From positions 1-61,497 of IMG/VR virus record IMGVR_UViG_3300008258_000001: DNA of 61,497 bases; one strand, given 5' to 3'. Positions 3,297 through 59,234 of this stretch are shown here, piece by piece; the first letter of the stretch is position 1; each line of letters opens with the position of its first letter. A model generated the notes under the pieces. That model saw only the letters and a list, made by a program, of their open reading frames with translations, was not told the origin of the DNA and did no database searches. The stretch is from a virus. The translations under genes and the position numbers were made by a program.

Positions 3297-3574
3297 CGCA
3301 TCAGCACCAAGATGTAGGCGTTCTCGGACCCGCCTGATGCAGTAACCAGTGTGGAGGCTACGTCGATGCTGTGCGCGATCGCGCGGCGGTCAAGTGGAGG
3401 AGCGTCGATCATGATCTGTACCACCAGTACCTCACGGCCGCTGAGAACAGGGTAGTTGTTCTGTATGTACCCGCCGCCGGGCACAAAGAAAAAATCAACT
3501 TGGTTCCACGTCACGTCGTCCGACGAATAACTCGTTACACCTTGGTCGGTGTACACGCCGAGGCCGTAGCTCAT
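3293..3574 (-). CDS. Small tail-region protein
   Basis: 93 residues, starting MSYGLGVYTDQGVTSYSS, similar in style to the start of the next gene (MSWGFLATNATGQVLVSS). The two may be related small beta-structured tail proteins. It overlaps the next start by 4 nt (ATGA type) and begins immediately after the DUF1983-like fibre gene. Confidence 0.72.
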   Translation of the reverse strand: MSYGLGVYTDQGVTSYSSDDVTWNQVDFFFVPGGGYIQNNYPVLSGREVLVVQIMIDAPPLDRRAIAHSIDVASTLVTASGGSENAYILVLMR

Positions 3575-9778: not shown

Positions 9779-10226
9779 TATTAAATACCAATCCGTAGGT
9801 TTGTTCAGTGGCTTGAAAACCCGACTGTACGTTCACTGCTTTTATGTACGGATAACAGATCAATACTTTAGTGCCGCCTGTAAAACTATCCCCCGGATTA
9901 AGTCTAAGTGCAGATACATCTGGCAACTTGTTTTTATTAGTACCGGCAGTAATGCAAGCCCAAGTAGTATCCTCAGTAGCAGTCAGGGTGTAGTCCCCGG
10001 CGGAAATGTTTGGTTGTTCCTGTGAAAACCAACCCGGCACACGCGTTGACGTTACCACTCCGTCGCTATCTCTTGTTGCTACAACACGCCCAGATAACCA
10101 AATGCTTATATTGGGATTTTGAGATCTCGGAGTATCTTGAGGAACTTGCCAGCGCCACGTCTGACCCGCTTGCATCCGGCCGAAATACACTACCCAACCA
10201 AAAGCTGATTTAGGCACGAAATTCAT
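9771..10226 (-). CDS. Late structural-region protein, unknown
   Basis: 151 residues, mainly beta (GWVVYFGRMQAGQTWRWQVP, SAGDYTLTATEDTTWACI). The DTTWACITAG...LNPGDSFTGG pattern has a cupin-like feel, without a clear metal site. It overlaps the desaturase start by 8 nt and the upstream gene by 4 nt. It stands among fibre accessory genes, so a virion surface role is plausible. Confidence 0.7.
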   Translation of the reverse strand: MNFVPKSAFGWVVYFGRMQAGQTWRWQVPQDTPRSQNPNISIWLSGRVVATRDSDGVVTSTRVPGWFSQEQPNISAGDYTLTATEDTTWACITAGTNKNKLPDVSALRLNPGDSFTGGTKVLICYPYIKAVNVQSGFQATEQTYGLVFNNV

Positions 10227-10591
10227 GGGAGATTCACCGGCTCAAGTACGGCAACTGTTGATTGCGTTGCAGCCTGCGCATTAGGTACCAAAAAGCTGTA
10301 GTTGACAGGAGTGGCAGTTCGCTTCAACTTTAATAGGTTTATGTTTTTGGCATGGATTTGAGTTAAACCATCCACAAACGCCTGCCCACCATGATGCTCT
10401 ACTAATTTCGCAACAAGATCTTCTTTAGTATTGCCCAAGGCGGCCGGCAAGGTACTGCTACTATCAAGAATCGCAGACCCCGCACCAATTGATGTTTCAA
10501 CACCTTCAGTGGCAGTGAAAATCCAGTCAATAATTACTACATTACCATTCTGGTCAGCTTTAACAGCAGTTATATCAAATTGGGTGTGCAT
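10223..10591 (-). CDS. Late structural-region protein, unknown
   Basis: 122 residues. The first half is a compact beta region (FDITAVKADQNGNVVIIDWI), the second a mixed helix (EDLVAKLVEHHGGQAFVDGL). This layout resembles small proteins found beside tail-fibre genes in phages. No firm family call. Confidence 0.7.
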   Translation of the reverse strand: MHTQFDITAVKADQNGNVVIIDWIFTATEGVETSIGAGSAILDSSSTLPAALGNTKEDLVAKLVEHHGGQAFVDGLTQIHAKNINLLKLKRTATPVNYSFLVPNAQAATQSTVAVLEPVNLP

Positions 10592-10605
10592 GTTAATAGT
10601 CCTAT

Positions 10606-11061
10606 TTATGGCTTTTCTGCGCCATACAAGTTGCTGATGCTGATTTGGCCGGAAGTTGGGACACTGCCGTTGATGTTTACGGTCGTAGAACTGGATCTGG
10701 AGACTTCCCCTTGGTATTCTTCTCTTTCAGGGTTTTTTAAATAAAGTGTAACCCGAATAGTACCTCGGGTGTACGTGTAGTCTCCTATGGTTACCGTTAC
10801 CGTTGAGGCCCCTAAGTAGCCGAGATATACTCGTACGTCGGCCCACCAAATAAAAACATAATCATTTAAATTATTCCAAGACCAATAATAATCCGCTCCA
10901 GATATAGCGTAAGACGGCCCTTCGGTTGTAGTAACCGTTTTTGTACTCGGCACCAGCCCGCCGCCACGGTAATACTCGCTCAGGCTGTGCGGTGCTGTAC
11001 CACCCATTACACCGGCAATGTCGTTGATGCTCAGGGCACCTGATGACGGGAGAACTGCCAT
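10606..11061 (-). CDS. Fibre-associated structural protein
   Basis: 151 residues. The N-terminus LPSSGALSINDIAG...LSEYYRGGGLVP and C-terminus VPTSGQISISNLYGA are the short Ser-Gly-Ile repeats typical of phage tail-fibre and tail-tip decoration proteins. Between them lies a Trp/Tyr-rich beta domain. It begins one base after the S74-type fibre gene ends, so the two products are likely to act together at the fibre. Confidence 0.8.
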   Translation of the reverse strand: MAVLPSSGALSINDIAGVMGGTAPHSLSEYYRGGGLVPSTKTVTTTEGPSYAISGADYYWSWNNLNDYVFIWWADVRVYLGYLGASTVTVTIGDYTYTRGTIRVTLYLKNPEREEYQGEVSRSSSTTVNINGSVPTSGQISISNLYGAEKP

Positions 11062-28870: not shown

Positions 28871-29914
28871 ATGGCAAACTATGCCAGCATCATCTCGCTC
28901 GCTTCGCACGTCCTGAAGAACAACCCCACTCAGGCCATCATGGTCTGGGGCGCGCCGGGTTGCGGCAAGTCTCACCTCGCAACCGAGGGTCTGCCCAAGG
29001 CTCTGGGCATGCTGCCGATGGAACATCCTGACAGCCCGGTCAGAATGTTCCGACCCTCGAACCACGACCCGGTGGATCTGACTGGCCTGCCCATGGTCAC
29101 CGAGACCAGCACCAAGTGGATCACCCCGGCATTCCTGCTGGGGATCAACGAACTGGCCGAGCGGCATGGCAAGGCAATGCTCGTGATCGACGAGTTGAAC
29201 CAAGCAGTGCCGATGATGTTCAACACCCTCAACGGTCTGATCCTCGACCGTCGCATTGCCGAGTTCAAGCTGCACCCCGGTGTGCATATCGTTGCCACTG
29301 GTAACCGACAGACGGACAAGGCAGCGTCCAACCGCATGCCTAGCCACACAGCGAATCGCCTTGCTCACTTCGACATGGAGTCCGACCTCAAAGGCTGGCA
29401 ATCGTGGGCGATCAAGGCGGGCCTGCCCCTGTGGATCGTGTCGTTCCTCGGGTTCCGCCCAAACCTGCTCAACGCGTTCGATGCGGACAAGCGCGAGAAC
29501 CCCACCGAGCGTTCGTGGGAGATGTTCGCCCGTGCTGCTGGTGGCGACCTGCCCTTGGATCTGACCATGACGCTGGCCCAAGGGTTCGTTGGCGAGGGTG
29601 CGGCGGCCGAGGTCGCTGCGTTCCGTCGGGTCGAGGCAGAGATGCCAAACCCTGACGCCTGCCTGCTGTCCCCGAGTACCTCTCCCCTTCCCGATTCCCT
29701 TGCAGCCAAGTACGCCATGGCCGGTGCAATGGCTAACCGCGCAACCAAGCAGAACATCGGTGCTGTGCTTGAGTACATGGGTCGACTAGAAAAGCAGTAC
29801 GAGGTGCTCACCATGCGTAGTGCGTACGTTCGTAAACCCGAGATCACCGCCACCGCTGCGTTCCTCACGTGGGCCGCGCACCCCGACAACGCCCAAGTAT
29901 TCATCGGAGTCTGA
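28871..29914 (+). CDS. MoxR/CobS-like AAA+ ATPase
   Basis: 347 residues. Walker A GAPGCGKS (27-34), Walker B LVIDEL (104-109), sensor-1 TGNR (143-146) and a probable arginine finger in the SHTANRLAHF segment (159-168). This matches MoxR/CobS-type chelatase-like AAA+ proteins, which remodel partner complexes together with a VWA protein. The partner follows one base after the stop. SD GGAG lies eight bases before the ATG. The reading frame contains a copy of the 12-6-12 repeat (29021-29050). Confidence 0.88.
   Translation: MANYASIISLASHVLKNNPTQAIMVWGAPGCGKSHLATEGLPKALGMLPMEHPDSPVRMFRPSNHDPVDLTGLPMVTETSTKWITPAFLLGINELAERHGKAMLVIDELNQAVPMMFNTLNGLILDRRIAEFKLHPGVHIVATGNRQTDKAASNRMPSHTANRLAHFDMESDLKGWQSWAIKAGLPLWIVSFLGFRPNLLNAFDADKRENPTERSWEMFARAAGGDLPLDLTMTLAQGFVGEGAAAEVAAFRRVEAEMPNPDACLLSPSTSPLPDSLAAKYAMAGAMANRATKQNIGAVLEYMGRLEKQYEVLTMRSAYVRKPEITATAAFLTWAAHPDNAQVFIGV
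29021..29050. promoter_or_regulatory. 12-6-12 inverted repeat, copy H5 (inside the AAA+ gene)
   Basis: Left arm GAACATCCTGAC, spacer AGCCCG, right arm GTCAGAATGTTC; one mismatch per arm pair, and the stem can extend by one G-C pair outward. It lies within codons 51-60 of the AAA+ gene, so it cannot be explained as an intergenic terminator. Confidence 0.65.
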
Positions 29915-29915
29915 C

Positions 29916-31094
29916 ATGAACCACGAAACCAAGGTCAAACTGGCAATGAGCCAGATGGTGCTCAAGGCACCCTTCTTCGCCTACCTCACGTTGCAGCGCC
30001 CGGTCACGTTCACCGAGACCATGACCAAGACGGCAGGGGCCGACGCGCGAGGTCGCATCTACATCAACCCGACGTTCATCAAGGATCGCAGCGTGGACGA
30101 GGTGGTGTTCCTGCTGGCGCATGAGGCAATGCACGTTGCGTTCCTACACTGTCACCCGAGTACGGCGCAGGGTCGAGACCAGCGGGCGTGCAACATCGCC
30201 ATGGACAAGGTGATCAACGAGACCCTCATCGCCGAGCGACTCGGCGAGTTCATCGAGGGTGGGCAGCGGCACGCCGGTGCTGAGAAGATGACGTGGGAGC
30301 AGTTGTACGTCGACCCGCCCGAGGACGATGGAGGTGGCGGCGGTGGGTCCGGTGGTGACTCTGGCTCATCGGAGATGATAGGTCGCTCTGGCGACGTAGG
30401 CGGCATCGGCGACGATTTGTTGCCCTGTCCGGACGGTGAGCCCATCGGTGTTGAGGCCGAGACGCTGCGCGATCAGATGCGTGGTGAACTGGTCAGCGCA
30501 GCCAACGCAGCCAAGATGGTCGGTGCACTGTCGGCAAACATGCAGCGCGTGTTGAAGGACATCATCTTCCCGCCGACACCGTGGCATGCCATCCTCGAAC
30601 GGTTCATGCAGTCGTTCGTGTCCAGCGACTACTCGTGGAAGCGGCCCAACCGTCGTTTCGTGGGGCAAGGCATCTATCTGCCATCGCTCGACAAGCAGCC
30701 GCGCATGGGCAAGATCGGACTCATCGCCGACACCTCGGGCTCTATCGGTCAGCGCGAGGCCGACGCGTTCAACGGACACTTCAACCGCATCATCGAGACC
30801 TGCATGCCCGAGGAAGTCATCGTGCTGTCTGTCGACAGCGAGGTGTGCGGTGTGCAGCGTTTCGAGCCCGACGACTTCCCCGTCAAGTGGGACCCCAAGG
30901 GTGGCGGAGGTACGGACATGCGAGAGGGTTGGGCGTGGTTCGACAAGAACGAGACCGACCTCGACTGCATCGTGTGCCTGACCGACGGTCTCACCCCATG
31001 GCCCGACAGCGTGAACACCCCGAGCATCGTTCTGTCCACCACCGACAAAGTTGCGCCTGCTGCCGTGGGCGAGACCGTCCACTTCAAAGTTTAA
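29916..31094 (+). CDS. VWA-domain protein with N-terminal metallopeptidase-like domain (DUF2201-like)
   Basis: 392 residues from ATG 29916. N-terminal domain: zinc-binding HEAMH at 69-73 followed by the family's NIAMDKVIN block (93-101). An acidic Gly-rich linker (about residues 130-165) follows. The C-terminal VWA-like domain has MIDAS loop DTSGS at 272-276 and a later TDGLTPWP. Such proteins pair with MoxR/CobS-type ATPases, as here. Whether the HExxH site is catalytic is unknown. Role: probably the substrate- or metal-binding half of an AAA+ remodelling machine. Confidence 0.88.
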   Translation: MNHETKVKLAMSQMVLKAPFFAYLTLQRPVTFTETMTKTAGADARGRIYINPTFIKDRSVDEVVFLLAHEAMHVAFLHCHPSTAQGRDQRACNIAMDKVINETLIAERLGEFIEGGQRHAGAEKMTWEQLYVDPPEDDGGGGGGSGGDSGSSEMIGRSGDVGGIGDDLLPCPDGEPIGVEAETLRDQMRGELVSAANAAKMVGALSANMQRVLKDIIFPPTPWHAILERFMQSFVSSDYSWKRPNRRFVGQGIYLPSLDKQPRMGKIGLIADTSGSIGQREADAFNGHFNRIIETCMPEEVIVLSVDSEVCGVQRFEPDDFPVKWDPKGGGGTDMREGWAWFDKNETDLDCIVCLTDGLTPWPDSVNTPSIVLSTTDKVAPAAVGETVHFKV

Positions 31095-46411: not shown

Positions 46412-49285
46412 TTGGACACAGAAGCATTCCTTTCTCATATCCTGCCATCGCAGGGTTACTTGTTCGTGTTGCACTCGGACACCGGAAAACCGCCGTTTTC
46501 CCACGAAGTAGCCGAGGACGCGCAAGAAGCTGCACAACTCGTGCACAGGTTCGTCAAAAAGAACTCCGTGTTTCACGCCTGCGCCTCGTTCAAGGAGGCG
46601 TTTGTATGGTCCACCACCGAGAAGTATTCCAACGGCAAGCCGAAGAAGAAGTGGCGCGAGCACACCAACGCTTACCTTGTGAAGTCGTTGTGGGCTGATC
46701 TGGACTGTGGCCCCACCAAGGGCTACCCGGATCAGAAAACGGCGATCACCGACGTGATGCGTTTCTGCAAAGAAACGAACGTACCGCGCCCGTTGTTCAT
46801 CAACAGCGGCACTGGCGTGCATTGTTACTGGGTGTTTGATCAGGCAGTCACGGCTGCTCAGTGGAAACGTATCGCCAACATGTGGCGCTGCGTTCTCGAT
46901 CACTTCGAGATTAAGCACGACTCTAGCTGCACCGCCGACATCTCTCGCGTTCTGCGTCCGGTAGGATCGTTCAACCGAAAGAACGACTCGCGCGAAGTCA
47001 AAGTAATCGGCTCCGTGCCGCCCGTTATTCCTGCGAAGGATATGGTCGGCCTGCTGGTTGGTCTGATCAAGGCGAACAGCATCAAGGTCACTGATTCACC
47101 GACGGCGAAAGCACGCCCGAAGGCAGACAACAGCGATCTCGGTGGTGGCATGGACTACCCGCCTTCGTCAGCGCATCAGATCGCGCAGCACTGCGCGCAG
47201 GTCAAGGAGTTCCGCGACACCCTTGGCAACGTCGACGAGCCAGTGTGGTACGCCATGCTTGGACTGCTGAAGCACACGGTTGAGAACGACGCCATCTGCC
47301 ACGAGTGGAGCGCCGGCCATTCGAGTTACGACTTCAACGACACACAGAACAAGATCAACCAATGGGTGCATGGCCCCACCACGTGCAGCAAGTTCTCCGC
47401 GTTGAACTCCAAGGGGTGCGATGGGTGCCCGCACAGTAAGAAGGTCTCCAGCCCGATCCAGCTTGGCACCGTTGTGCCGGAGAGCAAAGAGATCGTGGAG
47501 GAGGACGACTCGACCGGAGAGGTCGAAGAACTCCCGAAGATCCCTCGCCACATGGCGGAGAAGTTCGTTTGGACTGGGAACAACCTGTGCATTTTCACCC
47601 GCACTGAAGATGGCGTCATTGAGCACGTTCCGTTCAGCGCGATGTATCTGTACCCGAAGCAATACTCACGCAACGTCGCCAACAAGATGGACATGACTTG
47701 GGTGCTTAGAGAGCGTCCGGGACGGTACAGGGAGTTCGAGTTGCCGGGTGAGGTGATCGGGGTCGGCGGCCGAGACCTGTCGGCCAAGTTAGGGCAGCAA
47801 GGTGTGGTGTGCTCGCCCGGAGGAAAGAAAGCGATGGAGCAGTACATCACAGAGTGGTTTAACGTGATGCGTGGGACCGTCGATGAAGTCGCGGCGTACA
47901 CCACTTTTGGCTGGCACAAGGAAGGGTTTCTTCTCGGCGATACGCTGTTTAAGGCAGACGGCTCGCACATGCGCGTCCGAGTTCAAGGTGACGCCGAGCG
48001 GTACGCAGAGGCGTTCCAGCCGAAGGGTTCACTTCAGGAGTGGATCGACAAAGTTGACGCGCTGTACAACCGGCCGAGCCATGAGCAGTTCCAGTGGATG
48101 ATGGCAACCGGGTTTGGCGCGCCGCTGGTCAAGCTGCTCGGTGGTATCGCTGGCTGCATCATCAACGGCTACAGCAGTGAGTCCGGCCTTGGTAAATCCA
48201 CCGCTGGTATGGTGGGCCTTGGCATGTACGGAGACCCGCACAAGCTGATGCTGGCTAAGAACCAAGCAACCACGAAGGGGCTGTTCGCCTACGTGGGGAT
48301 GATGAACTCCCTGCCAGTTTTGCTCGACGAAGTTACCAACACCAAAGGGTACGAGTTCTCTGATCTGGCGTACACGTTCTCCAACGCTACGGGTCGAGTC
48401 GGCGCTCAGTCTGACGGGTCGTTGCGCGCCAACGTATACGGGTGGAACACGCTTCTTCAGTGCACGTCCAACCGAGCCATCCAGCCGACGATCGCCGCAT
48501 CCAAGGTGGATGCGACTCCAGAGATCGCCCGTGTCTTTGAGTACAAGTTTGTGCGCCCCACGGGGACGATGACCAAGCTGGACGCGGACGATCTGATCCC
48601 GTCGCTGATGGCTAACTGCGGCCATGCGGGGCGGGTGTTCATTCAGTACGTGGTGCAAAACCAAGAGGACGTTCGTACGCTCCTGTCCAAGACTCGGCGG
48701 ATCATCTCCAAGAAAGGCAACGTCGGGCAACAGGAACGATTCTGGCTGGCCGGCATGACCGTCATAGTTACTGGCGTTCTGATTGCCAAGAAACTGGGGT
48801 TGGTCAAGTTCGACGTGGCGGCCCTGCTTGATTGGGCACTTCGTCAGGTCCGGTCAATGCGTGATCTGGTTGGCGAGACAGAGACCAACGTGCTCGATCA
48901 GTTTGGCGTGATGCTCAACGAGTTGTCCAACGGCTTCCTTGTGACGGACAAAGAAGGGGACGCGCGAGCCAACGAGGCTCGGGCTCTGGTTCTCCACTCC
49001 CCCCGTGGCGAACTGGTCGGGCGAGTTGTCGCCTCCAGCAATACGCTGTACCTGCCTGTCAGCGTGGTGAGGAAGTGGTGCAGTGAGAACCAAGCGGACT
49101 ACCGGGAGATGACCAACGCGCTCGTAGCGATGCAGTGGGCGTCGATGGAACCCAAGTCCATCTCTCTTGGCAAGGGCACCCACGACTACGCGACTGCCCC
49201 GAGCCGTTGCTACAAGATTGATCTCGCACAAGCGGGCGGCCAGTTGAGCGCCGCCGCACAAGTCGTTCAGCTTCGTACGGCATAG
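46412..49285 (+). CDS. Primase-helicase (AEP-type primase with DUF927/AAA-type helicase domain)
   Basis: 957 residues from TTG 46412: the upstream frame has a stop at 46382 and no ATG or GTG, and homologous proteins begin with similar MDTEAF. N-terminal primase: WADLD with Asp 96 and 98, then INSGTGVHCYWVFD and TADISRVLRPVGSFN. Middle: Cys cluster GPTTCSKFSALNSKGCDGCP. C-terminal ATPase: SGLGKST with Walker A at 592-597, then VLLDEVT. Its role is to unwind the fork and prime. The start is preceded by the self-complementary GGGGGGCCCCC instead of a normal SD. Confidence 0.9.
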   Translation: MDTEAFLSHILPSQGYLFVLHSDTGKPPFSHEVAEDAQEAAQLVHRFVKKNSVFHACASFKEAFVWSTTEKYSNGKPKKKWREHTNAYLVKSLWADLDCGPTKGYPDQKTAITDVMRFCKETNVPRPLFINSGTGVHCYWVFDQAVTAAQWKRIANMWRCVLDHFEIKHDSSCTADISRVLRPVGSFNRKNDSREVKVIGSVPPVIPAKDMVGLLVGLIKANSIKVTDSPTAKARPKADNSDLGGGMDYPPSSAHQIAQHCAQVKEFRDTLGNVDEPVWYAMLGLLKHTVENDAICHEWSAGHSSYDFNDTQNKINQWVHGPTTCSKFSALNSKGCDGCPHSKKVSSPIQLGTVVPESKEIVEEDDSTGEVEELPKIPRHMAEKFVWTGNNLCIFTRTEDGVIEHVPFSAMYLYPKQYSRNVANKMDMTWVLRERPGRYREFELPGEVIGVGGRDLSAKLGQQGVVCSPGGKKAMEQYITEWFNVMRGTVDEVAAYTTFGWHKEGFLLGDTLFKADGSHMRVRVQGDAERYAEAFQPKGSLQEWIDKVDALYNRPSHEQFQWMMATGFGAPLVKLLGGIAGCIINGYSSESGLGKSTAGMVGLGMYGDPHKLMLAKNQATTKGLFAYVGMMNSLPVLLDEVTNTKGYEFSDLAYTFSNATGRVGAQSDGSLRANVYGWNTLLQCTSNRAIQPTIAASKVDATPEIARVFEYKFVRPTGTMTKLDADDLIPSLMANCGHAGRVFIQYVVQNQEDVRTLLSKTRRIISKKGNVGQQERFWLAGMTVIVTGVLIAKKLGLVKFDVAALLDWALRQVRSMRDLVGETETNVLDQFGVMLNELSNGFLVTDKEGDARANEARALVLHSPRGELVGRVVASSNTLYLPVSVVRKWCSENQADYREMTNALVAMQWASMEPKSISLGKGTHDYATAPSRCYKIDLAQAGGQLSAAAQVVQLRTA

Positions 49286-49347: not shown

Positions 49348-49375
49348 CCCCCGGGTAACCCCCGGGGGTTTTTTT
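49348..49375 (+). terminator. Terminator between the converging arms
   Basis: CCCCCGGG, loop of five, CCCGGGGG, then seven T. It ends the rightward transcript just before the stop of the leftward 1402-residue gene. Confidence 0.88.
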
Positions 49376-52300
49376 ATTGCAGTGCGAACCGACCGACCTC
49401 GCCCATCTTCTGGTTGGTGTTGCCGCCAACCGTGGCGTACTTCTTCTCAGTCTTGGCTCGCTCGCGCTCGAAGCGGAACAACTCGGATTTGGTGATCGGC
49501 TCAAGACCGTTGCGCGCCCGTACCGGGTTGGTCTTGGTTTTGATCTCCTGCCAGATTTCCTCGGCACGGGCGTTGTCCCCGTCACGGCGAGCTTCCAGCC
49601 AATCCTTCTTGTACTCAGATGCGGTGGCTGCCATCTTGGACTTCTTGCCCTCAATGGCGGCGCGGGCCTCGTAGCTCTCAGTGATCCGTGCGGCGGGTAC
49701 GCCTGCTGCCTGAAGCGCCACGTCCCAAGCAGAGATGGCTTCCCGATCCAGTGCCACCGTGCCTTGCTTAGTGGTAACGCCTTCTTCAGCAAACCGGCCA
49801 GCGCGAATCGGATCAGAGATCCACTTGGGAAGAAGTTGTTCCGTTCCCTTGATGAAGTCACCCTTGGCGAAGAAGCTGGCCGCCTCTCCGAACTGGGGCA
49901 GGATTCCACCAGCAAATGGGCCGGCGGCGGCAGCGAGCAACTCCAGCACGAAGTCCCGCCCCTTCTTGTCGTCGCGCAGCGTGGGGACTGGGTTGAGCAG
50001 ATCGCCCAGACCGACCTTCTTGGACATGTCGGCGTTCACGAGCGTAGGCAAACCTTTGGACAACGCTGCACCGGCTTCTTTGCCAAACGTATCAGCCAGA
50101 TAGTTGCGCAGCGCGACCTCAGAGTCCCAAGGCTCGTCGTCATCGCCGAAGGCCTTAGACACGATGTTGGCTAGGGTCAGCGCCAGACCAAACCCCGGCA
50201 TGCCGAGAACACCGCCGACAGCGAGGTGGGTCATCATCACGCCGAAGATCTGGGCCTTGGCTTCTTTCTTGGCGATCTTGTCACCACTTGCCATGGCAGC
50301 GGCGGCTTTGACGAACAGGGAGATCATGCCCAGTTGGTACTTCTTGAACTGGAACAGAATCTTGTTCATCGGCACCGTGCCCGGCTTCATCCAGTACGGA
50401 GCGTTCTCCACCGAGTAATCGAAGTGCGTGTCCGCCAGAACTCGTTTCGCGTAGGCAGTGGCTCCATCAACACCAGACTTGGATTTCTCCAGACGGTAGG
50501 CGGCGAGCGCCGTACTGATCCGGTTCAGCACCTCGACGAAGTGCGAGGGCTTCGCCATGAGCGAGGCAAACTTCGAGGTCGGCATTCCGTCTGCGGTGCG
50601 GGCGAGGTCCGCGACCATGGTGACATTGAGCAAGCGATTACGAAGCATATCGTTCAGCATCGCTACTTCATCAGCGGGCAGTCCGGCGTTCTCGAAGTTG
50701 ATCTCGCCACGGCCAAGACTGGCTTTCAAACTGGCGGCGACCATCTTGCTGGTCTGCGACCATGCCTTCGCGAAGGCCGCGTTCGACTTCGCGCCGTGTC
50801 GCGCCCACATCATCGGCAGAGACACCGTAAACGGCTGCGTCATGTTGGCGAACAGATAGCCGGGCGAGATACCGAGCTTGTAGATGTATGTGAACCCGGC
50901 AAGCGCGTCTTGGATTGGCGTGTCTACATAACGCAGCGAAGCCGCCAGCCTACGAGCCAACTCGTTGTGCACGCGTTTTAGTTCAACGTCCTTTCTGTCA
51001 TCCGCGTCCCGGTAGGCGACGTTGAGCGCCTCGCTAATTTTATCGCCGAACTCCATGCGTGATAGGTAGAACGAGTCGCGCAGCATCGTGGTGATGATGG
51101 CCCGCTCCATGTCGCGGTCGAAACCGGCGACGTTCTTACGCTTGGCTTGGCGAAGGATCGCACTGCGTTCCGGCAGAGTTTGCAAGAACACCTCGTACAT
51201 CGCCTTCTTGGCTTCCCGCAGGGCAGATGTATCACCACGAGCCCGCAGGCCAGCGGCCAACGACTCCTCAAGCCTAGTCAACATCGTGCGGCTGATCGGG
51301 TTCAACTCGCGCAGGTTCTCGCGCTTCAAATCAACGGTGCCCTTGATCTCTTTGGCGTGCCGGCGGGCTTCGCTTTCTGACTCGAACTGCGCCACGTAGT
51401 AGTCGGTCTCGCTGGACTTCATTCCGTCCAGCTTAGATTGCAGATCGTTGTAGATCTTGCGGGCAGACTTGATCTGCGCAGCTTCTTCCTCGGTGTACTC
51501 GCCAATGACTTCTTGACCCGCAGCTTTGAGCTTCTTGTTGGCCTCGCGGATCGCCTTGAGTTGCTCGGCTGTATGTTTGTCGTACTTGGCGTAAAGCGCT
51601 TCCAACGCTTTGTCCGCGGTGACAACTTCGTCTTGGAGCTTGGTGAACTTGTCGGACTTGCGCACCACAACCCACTCGCCGAATCGCAGCATGGGGAAGT
51701 AGTCGCCGGAGATCTGACCCAAGCGTTTATTGGTGTCGTCCAAGAACGCTCGCCGCTGGCGCTCAAGCTGGCGTACCTGCGAATCGTTACCGGCCTCACG
51801 GGCGGCTTTGATAAGCGGGTTGTAGACCTCATCGGCCGTGCGAGCCAAAAGATCACCACGTCGCTTCCAGTTGTCAGCCAGCCCGTCACGAGCAACACGG
51901 TAGGCCGCTTTCTGTTTGGCGGACATCTTGGCAAACCGGTCTTGCAACTCTTTGACCTTGGGGCTCACCACCTTCTTACCGTCGACGGTGGTACTCAGGT
52001 GATCGTTGTTGCGGTTCTCATTGGGCTCGATCACAACGTCGGCGGCAGTTACGTCCGCCATGAACTCCATGAGTTGCTTGCGCTCTTGCGCTGGCAGGCC
52101 GGTGAACGCCTCTTGCACTTTGGTCGCGGCTTCCTGAAGGTCCGCCGCGCGGGCGCTCATATCGAACGTGGTCTTGACGAACTCGTTCACGCCTTTGAGT
52201 TTCTCGCCGAAGCGCGACCCGAGATCACGCAGGAACGACGAGGCCAGCACAAACTCCTTGGCTTTGCCCAGACCGTCGACCGAGAGCTTGTCCGCCATGT

Positions 52301-53582
52301 CGTTGACTGCCTCACGGGCAGTGCGGTACTGGGTTCCGTACGTGGCGGTATATGACCCGACAGACGCTTTCACCGTGTCCATCACGAACTGGCGCAGCGG
52401 GTCGATCGGTGCGGAACGCAAATACTGCGCGAGCTTGGTAAGCCCCAACCGGTCAGCGATGTCGGCAAAGATGTTGCCCAGCTTGCGAACCAGTGACGGC
52501 GTGAAGTCGTTGGCCGTAAAGGTCTCGGCCATCTCCGCAAGAGCTTCTTCGACTGCCAGCGCGCGAGCGTCCTGCTGGCTCATCTTGGCGGTGTCTTTTT
52601 TGCCGTAATCAGTTTTGAGATACGCGTCAGCCAGAGCGCGTACTTCCGCGCTCTGGTCATACATGCGGTTCATGAAGGCCGTGTACTCAGCCTTGGGCAG
52701 AAGGTTTCTCAAACCCTTGTGGAACAACTCGTGAAACACAGTCTTGAGCCCCTCGACACCATCTGGGATGCCGTCGCGGAACAGGTACGCTACACCTTTC
52801 AAAGTACCCCCGGCACGAGTACCGGGCTTTTGCGTGGAGTCGATGTCTGTGACTGACTCAAGGATCGTGATGCCGCTGTCGCCGCCCAATGCCTTGTTGA
52901 CTTGCTCAACAATGCGGTTGAGTTCTTGGATCGAGATCGACTTGCGCGGCGGCTGCGCGCCGGTCTCGGTGCGGAATTTGATGCGCTCTTTCCAGTCTTT
53001 AATCTCCGCATCGGCTCCGTCGAGGTCGCCACTGTCCAATAGCTTCTCAATCGCAGCCGCATCACTGACAAACATGTCCTTGCTGATACGGGCGAGCGAG
53101 CGGCGCAAACGGGCTTCCCGCTCCTTGGGGGCCTCCGGGGTGTTATCGGTCAGATCACTGTTCTTGGTCTCGGTCGCAAGTTCCTCCGCCAGTGCCATGG
53201 TTGGCTTGCCTTGCTCCACTGCGTCTGCCCACTTGGCTTTTGCTGCGTCGGGGAGCGAACCCCACAACACGCCTTTTGGTGCGTACTGAGACCATTGGTT
53301 CTGGCCGAGACGCAAGCGCCCCATCTCTAGCGCCTTCTTGACGCCCTCGCTTTGCTCGGATTCCGGTGCCTTGGTTTCAACCTTGGCTTCTGGCTCAACG
53401 CCCTGCTCAAGACTCTGGATGTCCTGCTCCAAGGTCTTGATGATGTCCTGTGCGGCACGGATGTAGTGCGAGTCCGCCAGCTTCTTGTCACCCGCGAGTT
53501 CTTTTGCGCGAGAATCCAGCGCGTCGAAGTCCTCGACTGAGAAGTCTTTAGTGACGGCCAAACATTGCTTGAGGGTGCCCAT
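49374..53582 (-). CDS. Giant virion (ejection-type) protein with zinc-peptidase motif
   Basis: 1402 residues from ATG 53582, which has AAGGA seven bases upstream; an in-frame TTG at 53603 is less likely. HELFH at 284-288 is a classic HExxH zinc-binding motif in a segment KTVFHELFHKGL. The rest is very long helical and coiled-coil regions with several amphipathic stretches and a C-terminal part with hydrophobic helices (LAVGGVLGMPGFGLALTLAN). This profile fits an internal virion protein injected with the DNA, perhaps making a channel. It is the last gene of the leftward arm and ends at the terminator. Confidence 0.83.
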   Translation of the reverse strand: MGTLKQCLAVTKDFSVEDFDALDSRAKELAGDKKLADSHYIRAAQDIIKTLEQDIQSLEQGVEPEAKVETKAPESEQSEGVKKALEMGRLRLGQNQWSQYAPKGVLWGSLPDAAKAKWADAVEQGKPTMALAEELATETKNSDLTDNTPEAPKEREARLRRSLARISKDMFVSDAAAIEKLLDSGDLDGADAEIKDWKERIKFRTETGAQPPRKSISIQELNRIVEQVNKALGGDSGITILESVTDIDSTQKPGTRAGGTLKGVAYLFRDGIPDGVEGLKTVFHELFHKGLRNLLPKAEYTAFMNRMYDQSAEVRALADAYLKTDYGKKDTAKMSQQDARALAVEEALAEMAETFTANDFTPSLVRKLGNIFADIADRLGLTKLAQYLRSAPIDPLRQFVMDTVKASVGSYTATYGTQYRTAREAVNDMADKLSVDGLGKAKEFVLASSFLRDLGSRFGEKLKGVNEFVKTTFDMSARAADLQEAATKVQEAFTGLPAQERKQLMEFMADVTAADVVIEPNENRNNDHLSTTVDGKKVVSPKVKELQDRFAKMSAKQKAAYRVARDGLADNWKRRGDLLARTADEVYNPLIKAAREAGNDSQVRQLERQRRAFLDDTNKRLGQISGDYFPMLRFGEWVVVRKSDKFTKLQDEVVTADKALEALYAKYDKHTAEQLKAIREANKKLKAAGQEVIGEYTEEEAAQIKSARKIYNDLQSKLDGMKSSETDYYVAQFESESEARRHAKEIKGTVDLKRENLRELNPISRTMLTRLEESLAAGLRARGDTSALREAKKAMYEVFLQTLPERSAILRQAKRKNVAGFDRDMERAIITTMLRDSFYLSRMEFGDKISEALNVAYRDADDRKDVELKRVHNELARRLAASLRYVDTPIQDALAGFTYIYKLGISPGYLFANMTQPFTVSLPMMWARHGAKSNAAFAKAWSQTSKMVAASLKASLGRGEINFENAGLPADEVAMLNDMLRNRLLNVTMVADLARTADGMPTSKFASLMAKPSHFVEVLNRISTALAAYRLEKSKSGVDGATAYAKRVLADTHFDYSVENAPYWMKPGTVPMNKILFQFKKYQLGMISLFVKAAAAMASGDKIAKKEAKAQIFGVMMTHLAVGGVLGMPGFGLALTLANIVSKAFGDDDEPWDSEVALRNYLADTFGKEAGAALSKGLPTLVNADMSKKVGLGDLLNPVPTLRDDKKGRDFVLELLAAAAGPFAGGILPQFGEAASFFAKGDFIKGTEQLLPKWISDPIRAGRFAEEGVTTKQGTVALDREAISAWDVALQAAGVPAARITESYEARAAIEGKKSKMAATASEYKKDWLEARRDGDNARAEEIWQEIKTKTNPVRARNGLEPITKSELFRFERERAKTEKKYATVGGNTNQKMGEVGRFALQ

Positions 53583-53796
53583 CGAAGAATCCTTGTGTGA
53601 CAAGTGTGACGATCAGGTCGGTTACCAATTCGTCGTCACGTAGCAAATGATTGTACGCAGTTCGATTGAATGCGCCAGCCTTACCTTGCGTGGTATCCCA
53701 AACGTAGTCTTGGACGGGCGCAAAGCCCTGAACAGCGACTAGAGTCGCGGCAAACCCAATGCCTTGAAGCGCTACGGCACGGGGGTTCAGCATCAC
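53548..53796 (-). CDS. Small late protein
   Basis: 82 residues. Hydrophobic N-terminus (AVALQGIGFAATLVAVQGF) and a charged tail. It overlaps the upstream gene by 4 nt and runs 35 nt into the giant gene. Possibly a membrane-active or virion accessory. Confidence 0.65.
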   Translation of the reverse strand: MMLNPRAVALQGIGFAATLVAVQGFAPVQDYVWDTTQGKAGAFNRTAYNHLLRDDELVTDLIVTLVTQGFFDGHPQAMFGRH

Positions 53797-54710
53797 TGCC
53801 TCGTGACGGTAGTAACCGAGCCGCTAGTAACCATGGATTGGGCGATAACGCCGGCTGTCCTAGTTGTGGGAGTGACAGACAATGTAACCGTCAGGCCGTG
53901 CAGGGCCGCCAGTTCCTCAATCATAGCCCCGGGGTCGACGTCTGTGTACGTTGCATGAGCTGTGGTGGAGATACTCACCACGCCCCCGGCTTCTGAGACC
54001 GACTGCTGCACCACGCCAGACGATCGGGCGTCCGCTCCAACGACGAGCGGTGAAGGACCAAGACCGTGCAACAGGTAAATCTCGAACAATTGCCGCGCCT
54101 GCTCGGCGGTGATGACGTACCGGTCAGGAGAGACGCGCGGGGAGTAGAACGTGCTCTGGTTGGTGTACAGCCCCGGGAAAACCGGTGCAATCGGTCGAGT
54201 GACCGTGGGAGCGTAGAACGTGTTGGTGTTGTCGTACCTAGCCGGAGCCAGTGTGTATGTACTGACGACCGTCGGCGCAAAGAACTGACTGGTGTTGTCG
54301 TACCGGGCTGGGGCGGTAGTAACCGCGCCGGCGGTGACAGCGGGTGCAAAGAACTGGCTGGTATTGTCGTACCGCTGAGGCGCGACCGTCGCAGGCCCGA
54401 TTGTGACCGTGACCGCGTAGAACTGACTGGTGTTGTCGTACCGGGCGGGCTGAAGAACCGTACCGCCCTGAGTGACCGAGGGCGAGTAGAACTCGCTTGT
54501 ATTGTCGTACCGTGAAGCAGTGAGCGTTACTCCGCCGGCGGTGACCGTAGCGGTGTAGACAGTGCTGGTATTCGCATACAGCCCGGGCGTGAGCGTGACC
54601 GCTCCGGGCGTGACTGTAGCTGCAAAGAAGGTGCTGCTATTGTCGTACCGAGCGGGGGCGAGGTTCTGTGTGGCAGAACCACCGCCCTTAAATAACAGCA
54701 GCAATGACAT
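53793..54710 (-). CDS. NTS/T-repeat structural protein
   Basis: 305 residues. After a short N-terminus (LLLLFKGGGS) come eight imperfect repeats of about 20-22 residues, consensus A-R-Y-D-N-T-S-x-F-F-A-P-T-V-T. A 110-residue C-terminal domain (ITAEQARQLFEIYLLHGLGP ... GSVTTVTRQ) ends it. The repeat is a stackable beta hairpin seen in tail-surface proteins. Likely a virion spike or fibre component. Confidence 0.8.
   Translation of the reverse strand: MSLLLLFKGGGSATQNLAPARYDNSSTFFAATVTPGAVTLTPGLYANTSTVYTATVTAGGVTLTASRYDNTSEFYSPSVTQGGTVLQPARYDNTSQFYAVTVTIGPATVAPQRYDNTSQFFAPAVTAGAVTTAPARYDNTSQFFAPTVVSTYTLAPARYDNTNTFYAPTVTRPIAPVFPGLYTNQSTFYSPRVSPDRYVITAEQARQLFEIYLLHGLGPSPLVVGADARSSGVVQQSVSEAGGVVSISTTAHATYTDVDPGAMIEELAALHGLTVTLSVTPTTRTAGVIAQSMVTSGSVTTVTRQ
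54140..54670. repeat. Eight imperfect 60-66-bp coding repeats
   Basis: Core GTTGTCGTACC and relatives recurs about every 60-66 bp, encoding the Y-D-N-T-S repeat. Not a CRISPR array: spacers are also repeated and the phase is codon-locked. Confidence 0.75.
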
Positions 54711-54716
54711 GGCGCT

Positions 54717-54872
54717 TTAGTTAGTGGTTGGTGGAAACCACTGAATACACCACGGATGATCTGGGTCTACGTCGTAAAAAACGACAGCTAACTCCTCTTG
54801 TGGCTCAGGACGCGAAGCCTTGGCGTCAAGTGCATCTTGCTCCGTAGCGTATGCCCCAAGGTACTTATTCAT
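54717..54872 (-). CDS. Small late protein, 51 residues
   Basis: ATG at 54872 with GAGG eight bases upstream, stop at 54717. Acidic, ending in CIQWFPPTTN. It fills the gap between two virion genes on the same strand. Confidence 0.65.
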   Translation of the reverse strand: MNKYLGAYATEQDALDAKASRPEPQEELAVVFYDVDPDHPWCIQWFPPTTN

Positions 54873-54880
54873 ATTTAGCC

Positions 54881-55492
54881 TCAGTTATAACCGTAGGTGC
54901 CGCCACCTTGGTACTGGTTGATCTCGATCACTTCGTCAGTGATGATGTCCGGCACAAAGCGGACAAACGTGTCGCCTGTAGCAGATCCAGCAAGGCCGTT
55001 ATACATGTTCAAGACTGTACCTGCGCCCATCGTTCCGACGTTGACGACTCTTAGAGTGAACTTGATGCGCTCACCAACGTTCAAAGTGGTAGCAGTGACT
55101 GAGTAACTTAGACTCCTTGCCCCCTCGGACGTTCCATACTCAGCACCGATAGCAGTGGTGGTCAAAATATTGCTGAGAACCGTGCCCGAGTTGTCGCATC
55201 GGTCAATCGTGATAGCTGCACCAGCGTTTACCGTGCCAACACTCTCAGAACCGCGAATGTTGGGTGTTACTTGGCTCGCAGTAGCCGGTATCGTCACCTG
55301 TTGCGTAATCGGTTCAGTGAACCATTGAAGTGGCTGACCGCCAGCAGTTGCCGTGACCTGAATATCGGTGCCGCCAGCAGTTGCTGTCGTAAAGGCAGTG
55401 ACCGCACCACGACCGCGCATCTGACTGGCAAGACGGTCACCTGCGCCACCCACAGATGATGTAAGCGATCGCAGGAAAAAGTTGGTCGCCAT
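54881..55492 (-). CDS. Beta-rich virion protein
   Basis: 203 residues, Gly/Thr-rich, N-terminus MATNFFLRSLTSSVGG. Looks like repeated beta sandwiches and carries VEINQYQGGG-type ending. Overlaps its upstream neighbour by one base. Virion surface or tail, by composition and position. Confidence 0.75.
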   Translation of the reverse strand: MATNFFLRSLTSSVGGAGDRLASQMRGRGAVTAFTTATAGGTDIQVTATAGGQPLQWFTEPITQQVTIPATASQVTPNIRGSESVGTVNAGAAITIDRCDNSGTVLSNILTTTAIGAEYGTSEGARSLSYSVTATTLNVGERIKFTLRVVNVGTMGAGTVLNMYNGLAGSATGDTFVRFVPDIITDEVIEINQYQGGGTYGYN

Positions 55493-56163
55493 CAGATCTC
55501 ATAGCCCCAGACAGTGATCGTTACCGTCTGTGCTCCAGTCGTCGTTATACGCAAATACTCACCAACAGGACCACGGATCGGGGTCGGGAAGGACATAATC
55601 ACGCCGGGCTTGTTTGTTGCGCTCGGAACGAACTCGCCGTCAAAGATTGCTGGATCAGTGCCCCGTGTGTAGGTGTTATCGGCAGAGTCCCCAAACCACA
55701 AAATGCAAGTGCCAGAGTTTGTGCCACCAGACTGGATTTGAACCGATGTAATTACGAGTGACTTATCGACAGTAGAAGGTTGCCAAAGCGAAAACCCTGT
55801 AAGGGCTGTAGTGGCCTGATGTGTTTTCCATGTCGATACACTGCTGCGGATACGATCCCATGTCGTGCCGTTGAATCCGTATAGCCTTGCCTGCGTGTGC
55901 AACTGACTGATCGCATTGGTCTCTGCGTCAGCACCTGACGTATCGACGCTGACGGCATTGGTGCCGTCGCCGATCTGCACCTGACCCTGAACCCGGCTGA
56001 CATCGACCAGCATGCCGTTACTGGCATCCGCAGGCACCAGCACCCTGCTGCCATCAGCACTGACCGCCAGTTTGAAAAGCTGAATGTGCTCGCCAGTCGT
56101 CGTGACTTCGTCGGTGGCAATGTCGGTGCCAGTTCCGGCTGTGATTGGTACGTTATCTGCCAC
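55492..56163 (-). CDS. Phage structural protein
   Basis: 223 residues. Pattern ADNVPITAGTGTDIATDEV then IQLFKLAVSADGS ... WGYEI matches a widespread phage virion family. Its C-terminal beta domain (GEYLRITTTGAQTVTITVWG) is typical. Part of a four-gene set of virion surface proteins (54.9-57.0 kb). Confidence 0.82.
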   Translation of the reverse strand: MADNVPITAGTGTDIATDEVTTTGEHIQLFKLAVSADGSRVLVPADASNGMLVDVSRVQGQVQIGDGTNAVSVDTSGADAETNAISQLHTQARLYGFNGTTWDRIRSSVSTWKTHQATTALTGFSLWQPSTVDKSLVITSVQIQSGGTNSGTCILWFGDSADNTYTRGTDPAIFDGEFVPSATNKPGVIMSFPTPIRGPVGEYLRITTTGAQTVTITVWGYEI

Positions 56164-56174
56164 GGTTCAGTCCC

Positions 56175-56579
56175 TTACAACTGGAAGATGCCGGACGCAT
56201 TCCACGTAATGCTGATGTCGCCACCGTTGGTAGTGACGGGGAGGCCCGTTACTGAAGTGTCGATGTACGCCACCAGCCGCGAGGTGCCGGCAGTGCCAGT
56301 ATCAATATAGATCACCAAAGCCTCGACCGAAGTGGTGCCGGGCACGGCGGTGAAAGTTACGTTGTCTCCATCGAACAAACCGTTCGCGACAGTTGTATTG
56401 CCGATGGTCTGGGCGGTACCGACCACGCCGGTCAGCGAAGTAAGAAATTCATGCGCCGCGCTGTAGGTGTATGTGCCGGTGTCAACCAGTGCGACTTTGA
56501 CCGTACCGTCATTAAGGTCGACGTTGGCGGAGGCGTCAAGCAGAGCTTGCTTGTACAGTGGGTAGATGGCGTTAGCCAT
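56175..56579 (-). CDS. Phage structural protein
   Basis: 134 residues. YPLYKQALLDASANVDLNDG, VKVALVDTGTYTYSAAHEF and VIYIDTGTAGTSRLVAYID are the blocks of a known family of small virion proteins. Beta-rich, no enzyme motif. Confidence 0.85.
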   Translation of the reverse strand: MANAIYPLYKQALLDASANVDLNDGTVKVALVDTGTYTYSAAHEFLTSLTGVVGTAQTIGNTTVANGLFDGDNVTFTAVPGTTSVEALVIYIDTGTAGTSRLVAYIDTSVTGLPVTTNGGDISITWNASGIFQL

Positions 56580-56588
56580 GGCGGTTCC

Positions 56589-56963
56589 TTACAGGGTTGG
56601 GGTAGCGGTGATCGAACGGATCGTACCGCTCTCGTTACGCTCGAACGTGAACTTCCAGCTCGTGGGCACAACCTTCGGAACTGGAGCAGGCTGCACGGTG
56701 ATTTGTGGAGCTTCTACCACGACCTGCGGCGGTGGCATCTCCGGGACTACGACGTTAGGAGCCTGCTGCTTAGCCAGTAGCTCGACGATCTTTTGCAGTA
56801 CCTCGTCCGTCGCAGGCGGACGGACGTCGACGACTTGGGCAGGGCGACGCGAGTCGCGGGTTCCTGATGCGTTAAAAGTCTCGCCGTTCGACAAGCGAAC
56901 AGAAGCACCCATGCGCAACGCAAGTGCTTTCAGAGCCTCGTCATTATCTGCCTTGGACGCCAT
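56589..56963 (-). CDS. Small late protein, unknown
   Basis: 124 residues. Helical N-terminus, a Pro/Val-rich middle (VVVPEMPPPQVVVEAPQI) and a C-terminal beta hairpin (WKFTFERNESGTIRSI). Reminiscent of short virion adaptor proteins. Confidence 0.72.
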   Translation of the reverse strand: MASKADNDEALKALALRMGASVRLSNGETFNASGTRDSRRPAQVVDVRPPATDEVLQKIVELLAKQQAPNVVVPEMPPPQVVVEAPQITVQPAPVPKVVPTSWKFTFERNESGTIRSITATPTL

Positions 56964-56972
56964 GGTGCTAGT

Positions 56973-59234
56973 TTACTTCCTACGAAGGCAGGCGACAAAA
57001 CTTTTGAACTTGTCGATGTCAGCGCGCATCGCTGTGATCTTCTCATCGACGTTATCCACCTCAAGCTCAACTTCCTGCTCGCCTACTTTGGCTTTTACCT
57101 TGGCTTTGCGGGGCTTTTTGGGCTTGGTTTCACCTTCTCCGGCAGTTTGCCCTTGACCGGGTACTTCTTCTCCCACCGGTTTGCCACCTCGGGCTCCTTT
57201 GCGTGGAGATACCGGCGCTGCGCTTGGCTCTTGAACGGCACGTTGAGGCTCCTTTTGTGCAGGTTCCGCTTTCTTGGCTTTCGGTTGCGTAACCGGCCTG
57301 CCCAATGAATCAAACAACTTGCGCTGGCCCGTCTGGTCAAGTTCGACCGCAGGCTCAGGCTGCGGGGCCGCATTGGGGATGACCCTGCCCATTTCTTGGT
57401 TGGTGAACAGGCGACGCTGACCGCCGGGGCTGAGTTTTTCCTGACGCTCTGGAATCTGACTTTCCATCGCGCGCAGGTCCGTCTCGTCCTGAATCATTGC
57501 CTCAATGGCGCGGGTTTCCTGCTCGTCGATAACTTGAGCTTGCGCGCGTGCGGCGTCGGCGGCAATACGTTCCTGTTCCGCCCGGGCTTGGTTACCTTCC
57601 CGCATTTGCTGTTCAGTCGCTCCCGACTGCGGGATCGCCCCAGTAACTGAACCCGGACGAGCTAGGTTTAGTCCGCGAGCCGCCATTGCGTTAGTCATGC
57701 GCGACTGGAAGTCCTGCGCCATCTGGCGAGAGACTACGCCGACCTCTTGAGTCAGACGAGACTTTCGTTTCTTGCCGTTCGCATCTTTGTAGCCTCCGCT
57801 GTATTTCTCTATCAACGCATCGACAGCATCAGGGCCTTGCTCTATCGCGCGAGAAAAGTCGGCGACGTACCGTAAGAACTCATCGTTCGCCTTGCCGCCG
57901 TTGGCATTGCGCAGCGCGGCGCGAATCTGCTGAAGTCCGTACTCAGTGCGAACTAACGCCGTCGGGTCTTGCTCGAACATATCGAGCGTCTGCGTGTCCG
58001 GCGTAGGAGCAAGAGGCGTTTCTGCCGTAGCTACTGGGCCCATGCCGTACGGCACATCAGGTCCGCCAAACAGATCCGGCTGCAACCCACTCAAGGCGCT
58101 CATGGGCCCAACGGTGCCGCCCGGCGTCACGTACATGACGTTCGGGTCGTAGTTCTGAGATCCAACAGGCGTCACCGGCGCAGGAAGCGAAGGTTGGAAC
58201 GGAGCCAGCGGATCAATACGAGTAGGCTCAATGTATGGCGGCACTGATCCCAGATTGGGAGGAGCGCCAGTGGCGAGCCCACGCTCACCCACAAGAGCCA
58301 ACGGATACTGTTGCGTCTCAACCCCCGGATTGGCACCGGGCAGCAGATTCACGGGCTGCGGGGGTCTACGCAAGCCGCCCAATGAACCAAACGTACCTTC
58401 GGCCAAGCCGCCGATCACGGCAGCGTTCAGGCGGCGGGAAGCAACTTCTTCCGGGGTCAGGTTGGGGTTGAACCCCATGACCAGTTCTTCTTGCGCCAGT
58501 TCACTCAGCGAGCCGGCTCCGGCGTTGACCGCCCCTGCCTTTGCCATCCGGGTGCCGAGGCCACCAGAAAAAGCACCTCGGGCTAGTGTGTTGCCCAGTA
58601 CCGCAGTGGGAAGGCCCTCAGCGAGCGCGTACAACGGAGAAGCAGCAAACGCTTTGTAAGGCGACGGATCACCGGCTTCCACCGACTCGCCGTACATATC
58701 GCCGACGCCCATGCCGGCACCGAGAACGGCACCTCCAGTTAGGTTCTGTGCGAAGCGTTCCCCCGCTTGGAGGGCCGCACGACGAGCCGCGAAGTCAGCC
58801 CCGGCGCGAAGGCCGCCGCCACCTACAACCGCCGGGAGCGAAGCAGCACCACGAGCCAAGCCCATGGGAACCATTCCAGCACCGCCGGTCAATGCACCAA
58901 TACCAAGTGCTGCACCGATCTGTGGAACCTGCTTGGCAATCTGGTACGCCGCAAACGGAAGCGCCGTGCTGAGATCTTGGTCCTCGACCATCTCAAGGTC
59001 AGGACGCCCACTGGCGTAGGCTTCGGCTTCGTTTCTCGCGGCTCTCTCAAGTAGCCAGTCGCGCCCTCTTTCCAGTTTAAGAGCATCTGCGCCGGCAGCC
59101 AACGCGTTGTACCCTAGACCTTGCAACTGGTCGATACCGGACGACAACCCGGCTACTACCGGATTGCGCTTGGGCTTTTGCGGGAATAAAGAATTGATGC
59201 CCGCGACGTCGATACCAGTTAGGTCAAGCGGCAT
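56973..59234 (-). CDS. Large ejection-type virion protein
   Basis: 753 residues. The N-terminal half has several Gly/Ala-rich hydrophobic segments (ALPFAAYQIAKQVPQIGAAL, GALTGGAGMVPMGLARGAAS) suited to membrane insertion. The C-terminal half is charged with coiled coils and a basic KKPRKAKVKAKVGEQ tail. Layout matches podovirus internal ejection proteins. Lies in the same block as the 527- and 1402-residue proteins. Confidence 0.8.
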   Translation of the reverse strand: MPLDLTGIDVAGINSLFPQKPKRNPVVAGLSSGIDQLQGLGYNALAAGADALKLERGRDWLLERAARNEAEAYASGRPDLEMVEDQDLSTALPFAAYQIAKQVPQIGAALGIGALTGGAGMVPMGLARGAASLPAVVGGGGLRAGADFAARRAALQAGERFAQNLTGGAVLGAGMGVGDMYGESVEAGDPSPYKAFAASPLYALAEGLPTAVLGNTLARGAFSGGLGTRMAKAGAVNAGAGSLSELAQEELVMGFNPNLTPEEVASRRLNAAVIGGLAEGTFGSLGGLRRPPQPVNLLPGANPGVETQQYPLALVGERGLATGAPPNLGSVPPYIEPTRIDPLAPFQPSLPAPVTPVGSQNYDPNVMYVTPGGTVGPMSALSGLQPDLFGGPDVPYGMGPVATAETPLAPTPDTQTLDMFEQDPTALVRTEYGLQQIRAALRNANGGKANDEFLRYVADFSRAIEQGPDAVDALIEKYSGGYKDANGKKRKSRLTQEVGVVSRQMAQDFQSRMTNAMAARGLNLARPGSVTGAIPQSGATEQQMREGNQARAEQERIAADAARAQAQVIDEQETRAIEAMIQDETDLRAMESQIPERQEKLSPGGQRRLFTNQEMGRVIPNAAPQPEPAVELDQTGQRKLFDSLGRPVTQPKAKKAEPAQKEPQRAVQEPSAAPVSPRKGARGGKPVGEEVPGQGQTAGEGETKPKKPRKAKVKAKVGEQEVELEVDNVDEKITAMRADIDKFKSFVACLRRK

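What the first reader, a model, noticed from the sequence alone, without database searches (positions are those of the whole stretch)
49374..53582. 1402-residue virion protein with an HExxH zinc-peptidase motif
HELFH at residues 284-288 with typical hydrophobic neighbours sits in a protein otherwise like an ejected core protein. Internal virion proteins of podoviruses often carry a lytic enzyme to pass the cell wall; a zinc peptidase there would be an alternative to the usual transglycosylase. It could cleave peptidoglycan cross-links, host factors, or its own precursor.
Basis: partly seen in the sequence, partly recalled or inferred. Interest (0 to 1): 0.6.

Follow-up and report, generated by a model that had tools for sequence, protein, structure and literature searches.

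The report
Zinc-peptidase domain in phage polyvalent protein
A podovirus-like phage carries a large late protein, probably packed in the particle and injected into the host, with a well-conserved zinc-peptidase domain of a kind already predicted in many phage 'polyvalent' proteins; that domain more likely cuts proteins, perhaps its own carrier, than the cell wall, and in this phage the gene for the carrier has been split in two.

Summary
Minus-strand ORF 49374-53582 encodes 1402 aa with HELFH at residues 284-288. About 0.5% of shuffles of this protein contain any HExxH. Relatives in viral contigs, bacterial genomes and cultured podoviruses keep both histidines, the glutamate and a further glutamate (E346), 58 residues downstream on another helix. 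Predicted folds (pLDDT 86 and 93) show helix, three strands, HExxH helix and Glu helix, the layout published for the MPTase zincin of polyvalent proteins. No solved metallopeptidase was matched significantly. The C-terminal half is the known PLxRFG domain (NCBIfam E=7.6e-107).

A 4515-aa relative, Burkholderia phage JC1 gp69, carries the same HEAFH domain and was found in purified virions by mass spectrometry. So the protein is a polyvalent protein, probably packaged and ejected. The 'cell-wall cutter instead of transglycosylase' reading is weak: JC1 gp69 already has an SLT transglycosylase, and another relative a glucosaminidase. Self-processing or cleavage of companion or host proteins is more likely, but untested.

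New detail: a syntenic relative encodes this protein and the window's 753-aa protein as one chain; here a six-ORF cassette separates them, in a low-complexity linker upstream of the zincin.

Verdict: real, new member of a known kind, moderate interest.

The parts
49374..53582 (-). 1402-aa polyvalent protein (zincin, LPD39-like region, PLxRFG/tail-700 domain)
   Evidence: translation; NCBIfam NF032893 E=7.6e-107; PHROG DarB-like antirestriction and related families
52320..52952 (-). zincin (MPTase-like) domain, residues about 211-421
   Evidence: 39 viral and 5 bacterial-genome relatives; AlphaFold models pLDDT 86.1 and 92.8
52719..52733 (-). HELFH motif, residues 284-288: two zinc-ligand histidines and the catalytic glutamate
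   Evidence: invariant H, E, H in alignment A2
52545..52547 (-). E346, probable third zinc ligand (VEEALA motif, on a separate helix)
   Evidence: invariant in A2, equivalent Glu invariant in the JC1 group
52524..52526 (-). E353, second invariant glutamate of the Glu helix (EExxAxxxE)
   Evidence: invariant in A2 and in the JC1 group
51675..52214 (-). LPD39-like region ending in the PMLRFG motif (residues 630-635)
   Evidence: aligns with L031, where Pfam LPD39 (E=1.7e-49) ends at PLARFG; the window sequence itself does not score against LPD39 in Pfam
49434..51398 (-). PLxRFG (tail-700) domain, residues 729-1383
   Evidence: NF032893, 358 bits against a cut-off of 100
56973..59234 (-). 753-aa protein homologous to the N-terminal half of the fused 2060-aa relative in L013
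   Evidence: BLAST E about 1e-8, bit score 49 against a maximum of 25 in 60 shuffles; colinear, next to the same upstream gene
53548..56963 (-). six-ORF cassette (124, 134, 223, 203, 305, 82 aa) separating the two halves
   Evidence: ORF table; the 134- and 203-aa proteins are absent from the L013 contig; identical in independent contig L062 as far as that contig reaches

Best explanation
The segment is the zincin-type metallopeptidase domain of a phage polyvalent (PLxRFG/DarB-like) protein, the last gene of the late module of a circular, about 61.5-kb podovirus-like genome. The protein is probably packaged in the virion and ejected with the DNA. In the zincin, H284 and H288 on one helix and E346 on a second helix hold a zinc ion, and E285 activates water. 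The likeliest substrate is a polypeptide: the carrier protein itself or a companion ejection protein (for example at linkers between domains), so that parts needed at different places can separate; a host protein is the second choice. Shown: sequence, conservation, predicted fold, domain architecture, virion presence of a homologue. Inferred: zinc binding, catalysis, substrate, timing, and virion presence in this phage.
For: HExxH plus downstream Glu invariant and purifying selection. The predicted fold order, alpha-beta-beta-beta-alpha(HExxH)...alpha(Glu), equals the published MPTase description (PMC5512222). The best structural neighbours are other phage polyvalent or DarB-like proteins. Relatives place the zincin beside LPD1/LPD5/LPD38/LPD39, ART-PolyVal, MuF_C, ddrB-ParB or DarB-type methylase-helicase. 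JC1 gp69 shares the domain (27 bits; profile-profile probability 97%, E=1.6e-11) and is a virion protein with 51 unique peptides. The JC1-group profile also aligns with the N4 virion RNA polymerase C1 domain over HExxH and the Glu helix (E=2.2e-5, probability 76%).
Against: No significant match to a solved metallopeptidase, no Pfam MPTase-PolyVal hit, and the window profile does not itself reach N4 C1. According to PMC5512222, the N4 polymerase is packaged unprocessed, so self-cleavage is not general. In this phage the gene is already split upstream of the zincin, so separating those two parts cannot be its only job.
Confidence: 0.62

Rival explanations
1. The zincin cleaves peptide cross-links of peptidoglycan during DNA entry, replacing the usual transglycosylase.
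For: No wall hydrolase domain was recognised by Pfam in the window's 1402-, 753- or 527-aa proteins, so the virion's wall enzyme is unidentified.
Against: Homologues carry the zincin together with a dedicated wall enzyme in the same chain: SLT in JC1 gp69, Glucosaminidase in L030. No match to known peptidoglycan-endopeptidase families. The closest relatives are polyvalent-protein MPTases, also found beside ART and methylase-helicase modules that act in the cytoplasm.
Confidence: 0.08
2. The zincin is an injected effector that cleaves a host protein, for example a restriction or other defence enzyme, after entry.
For: Relatives combine it with ART-PolyVal, ddrB-ParB and DarB-like antirestriction modules. 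It is retained here although the N-terminal half is already a separate protein. PMC5512222 lists host targeting as possible.
Against: The domain is almost always embedded in a giant chain, and no host target is known.
Confidence: 0.2
3. The zincin fold is kept for structure: packaging signal or domain regulation, with little or no proteolysis, as possible for the N4 polymerase C-terminal domain.
For: PMC5512222 says the N4 polymerase is packaged unprocessed and that the region spanning its MPTase is needed for encapsidation; a 2025 preprint reports that the N4 C-terminal domain autoinhibits the polymerase (PMC12633501).
Against: Ligands and catalytic Glu remain invariant over very divergent sequences (23-50% identity), more than a scaffold role requires.
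Confidence: 0.1

Closest known systems
MPTase (zincin-like metallopeptidase) domains of phage polyvalent proteins, Iyer et al. 2017 (PMC5512222)
   Same: HExxH, downstream Glu on a second helix, three strands preceded by a helix, embedded in giant late-gene proteins with LPD, ART, ParB and methylase-helicase partners
   Different: Not recognised by the Pfam MPTase-PolyVal model; which of the 12 published clades it falls in could not be checked
Burkholderia phage JC1 gp69 and Bcep22-like DarB-like proteins (PMC9144972)
   Same: Homologous HEAFH zincin with EExxAxxxE, polyvalent C-terminal half, last gene of the virion module in 61-63-kb podoviruses
   Different: 4515 aa with SLT, methylase and helicase modules; the window protein has none of these and is split
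Fused 2060-aa polyvalent protein in viral contig L013 (IMGVR_UViG_3300022744_000037)
   Same: 48% identical across zincin, LPD39-like and PLxRFG parts; same gene order
   Different: One polypeptide, where the window has two genes separated by six ORFs
Phage N4 virion RNA polymerase C1 domain
   Same: HExxH zincin-like domain inside a giant ejected protein; alignable with the JC1 group
   Different: Different partner domains; only a weak indirect sequence link to the window domain

Membership tests
Polyvalent-protein MPTase (zincin) | HExxH motif on a helix | tested here: met
Polyvalent-protein MPTase (zincin) | Conserved Glu (third ligand) on a following helix | tested here: met
   E346 invariant, on the helix at model residues 140-158
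Polyvalent-protein MPTase (zincin) | Three-stranded sheet with an N-terminal helix | tested here: met
   secondary structure of both models; order only, coordinates not inspected
Polyvalent-protein MPTase (zincin) | Match to the Pfam MPTase-PolyVal profile PF18818 | tested here: not met
   the original authors describe 12 divergent clades, so one profile need not cover all; this profile match is a convenience, not part of the published definition
Polyvalent-protein MPTase (zincin) | Homology to the founding N4 virion polymerase MPTase | tested here: inconclusive
   indirect: window profile to JC1 group E=1.6e-11, JC1 group to N4 E=2.2e-5; direct comparison fails
Polyvalent-protein MPTase (zincin) | Zinc binding and peptidase activity | not testable with these tools
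   needs purified protein
PLxRFG domain protein (NCBIfam NF032893) | Score above the curated cut-off | tested here: met
   358 bits against 100; motif reads PMLRFG
Phage polyvalent protein | Large multidomain protein encoded with late virion genes | tested here: met
   late module from terminase and portal to this gene, joined across the window ends
Phage polyvalent protein | Presence in the virion and ejection | not testable with these tools
   shown only for the homologue JC1 gp69, presence in virion
DarB antirestriction protein | Adenine methylase plus SF2 helicase modules | tested here: not met
   no such domains in the 1402- or 753-aa proteins; the PHROG 'DarB-like' match covers only the C-terminal half
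Virion peptidoglycan hydrolase | Recognisable peptidoglycan-endopeptidase or glycosidase domain | tested here: not met

The most novel reading that the evidence does not exclude
The gene fission marks a natural processing point: in relatives the zincin cuts the low-complexity linker upstream of itself during assembly or entry, and in this phage a gene cassette has replaced that cut by separate genes, leaving the zincin to act in trans on another target.
Probability: 0.15. Interest if true: 0.55.

Novelty: new member of a known kind. Interest (0 to 1): 0.33.

Why it matters
Zincins were described as the commonest domain of polyvalent proteins, yet I found no paper in the searched library that gives one an experimentally shown substrate. 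This family is in cultured phages with a proven virion homologue, and it includes a natural fused-versus-split pair (L013 against the window), which makes the self-processing hypothesis directly testable.

Tried and rejected
Chance motif: rejected (conservation). Lone coiled-coil helix: rejected. Direct link to solved metallopeptidases by fold or sequence: nothing significant; the best core hit, an anthrax lethal factor chain at E=0.3, is not evidence. Pfam MPTase-PolyVal in the window or in five bacterial genomes: none, and the control rang nowhere, so this is uninformative about the family itself. Pfam TerB match at residues 457-524 (E=0.0015, below cut-off) taken as a helical chance match. 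Whole-protein pattern search for relatives failed; the domain-only search worked. The zincin region itself finds nothing by tblastn in cultured phages; JC1 was reached through the literature and a profile. The ORF 46412-49285 on the plus strand is a primase/helicase, not part of the system.

Full report
Observation. The minus-strand ORF 49374-53582 encodes 1402 aa with a single HExxH, HELFH at 284-288. By shuffling, 0.55% of sequences with this composition would hold any HExxH. The ATG at 53582 has an AAGGA a few bases upstream.

What the protein is. NCBIfam assigns residues 729-1383 to the PLxRFG (tail-700) domain, E=7.6e-107; the motif itself reads PMLRFG at 630-635. PHROGs matching the C-terminal half include one named DarB-like antirestriction. 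Cultured phages with the C-terminal half are mostly 60-64-kb phages annotated PLxRFG, DarB-like, DNA methylase, structural or hypothetical.

The zincin domain. A domain search gave 7 and then 39 viral loci and 5 bacterial-genome loci, three of them Comamonas, one Burkholderiaceae MAG and one Chitiniphilus. In 29 sequences (23-50% identity to the window) both histidines, the catalytic glutamate, E346 and E353 are invariant. Three loci caught by the Glu-helix pattern have HEVAGH, HEIAGH or HEVMGH, that is HExxxH, a variant that PMC5512222 describes for polyvalent MPTases. AlphaFold models of 244 and 151 residues (mean pLDDT 86.1 and 92.8, pTM 0.77 and 0.83) give helix, three strands, HExxH helix, intervening helices and Glu helix. 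PMC5512222 gives the same order for the MPTase core. Foldseek finds other phage polyvalent or DarB-like proteins (best E=1.6e-5) but no solved metallopeptidase. dN/dS in close pairs is 0.06-0.19.

Architectures. The same domain sits beside LPD38 (L002, L021, L034), LPD39, LPD5 and LPD1 (L031), ART-PolyVal (L023, L042, L051), MuF_C (L051), ddrB-ParB (L034), an N-terminal glucosaminidase (L030) and a methylase-helicase (L008, L041). Some chains have a second HExxH domain of the HEWWH kind.

Link to a proven virion protein. Phage JC1 gp69 (4515 aa) was identified in CsCl-purified virions with 51 unique peptides (PMC9144972). It carries HEAFH at 3465 followed by EEFGAYTVE, and also SLT, LPD3, LPD38 and weak methylase and helicase matches. 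The window profile and the JC1-group profile match at probability 97%, E=1.6e-11. The JC1-group profile aligns with the C1 domain of the N4 virion RNA polymerase through HELVH and the Glu helix (E=2.2e-5, probability 76%); the window profile alone does not.

Genome context. The late module runs on the minus strand from the terminase (24897) through portal, capsid, tail and endolysin genes to position 1. The ends join: a single ORF spans them and the independent contig L062, 100% identical in its aligned parts, crosses the junction with a 6-base overlap. The module then continues from 61497 down to 49374, so the 1402-aa gene is its last gene, as gp69 is in the JC1 virion module.

Split gene. 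In the syntenic contig L013 (major capsid protein 78% identical) the 527-aa gene is followed directly by one 2060-aa ORF. Its N-terminal part matches the window's 753-aa protein (bit score 49 against a shuffle maximum of 25, colinear, shared DTQTL...LRNANGG and LLPGANP), and its remainder matches the window's 1402-aa protein at 48% identity. In the window six ORFs (124, 134, 223, 203, 305, 82 aa) lie between; two of them were searched for and are absent from the L013 contig. The complete relatives with the zincin, and JC1 gp69, carry hundreds to thousands of residues upstream of it in the same chain, so the split is most simply derived. It falls in a low-complexity linker upstream of the zincin. 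Because the zincin stays intact, its job cannot be only to separate those two halves. That last step is inference.

Mechanism. Most likely a zinc endopeptidase acting on polypeptides of the ejected protein set (self or companions), with host proteins second. PMC5512222 proposes the same and notes that P1 DdrB is processed but the N4 polymerase is packaged uncut. A role in wall entry is disfavoured because relatives carry a separate wall hydrolase in the same chain.

Limits. The HELFH-based search pattern favours intact motifs. Virion presence in this phage, zinc binding and catalysis are untested.

Noticed in passing
window 4961/4962 and L062 2663-2782: An independent, otherwise 100% identical assembly (L062) carries about 120 extra bases at this point, at the border of the 729- and 466-aa late genes.
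   Followed up: partly
window 1 and 61497: The two ends belong to one ORF and overlap by 6 bases; the genome is circular or circularly permuted, about 61.49 kb.
   Followed up: yes
window 9062-9778, minus strand: 238-aa protein with fatty-acid-desaturase His boxes (HRYFTH, HTTHHVH) inside the phage late operon; matches acyl-CoA desaturase at E=4e-5. A possible host-derived lipid gene.
   Followed up: partly
window 9771-11061, minus strand: Three small ORFs with third-position GC of 0.38-0.48 against about 0.6-0.75 for most other genes, next to the tail fibre gene; probably a recent acquisition.
   Followed up: no
window 28871-31094, plus strand: ORF with a nucleotide-binding GxxGxGKS motif followed by a DUF2201 metallopeptidase-like plus VWA protein, a second metallopeptidase-type candidate in this phage.
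   Followed up: no
window 53793-54710, minus strand: 305-aa protein built of repeated ARYDNTSxFYxxxVT-like units, in the cassette that splits the polyvalent gene; weak minor-tail-protein match.
   Followed up: no
L031, L034, L036, L044, L050: Relatives carry a second HExxH domain (HEWWH) about 225-260 residues before the HELFH domain, in L031 and L034 between LPD5 and LPD1.
   Followed up: no
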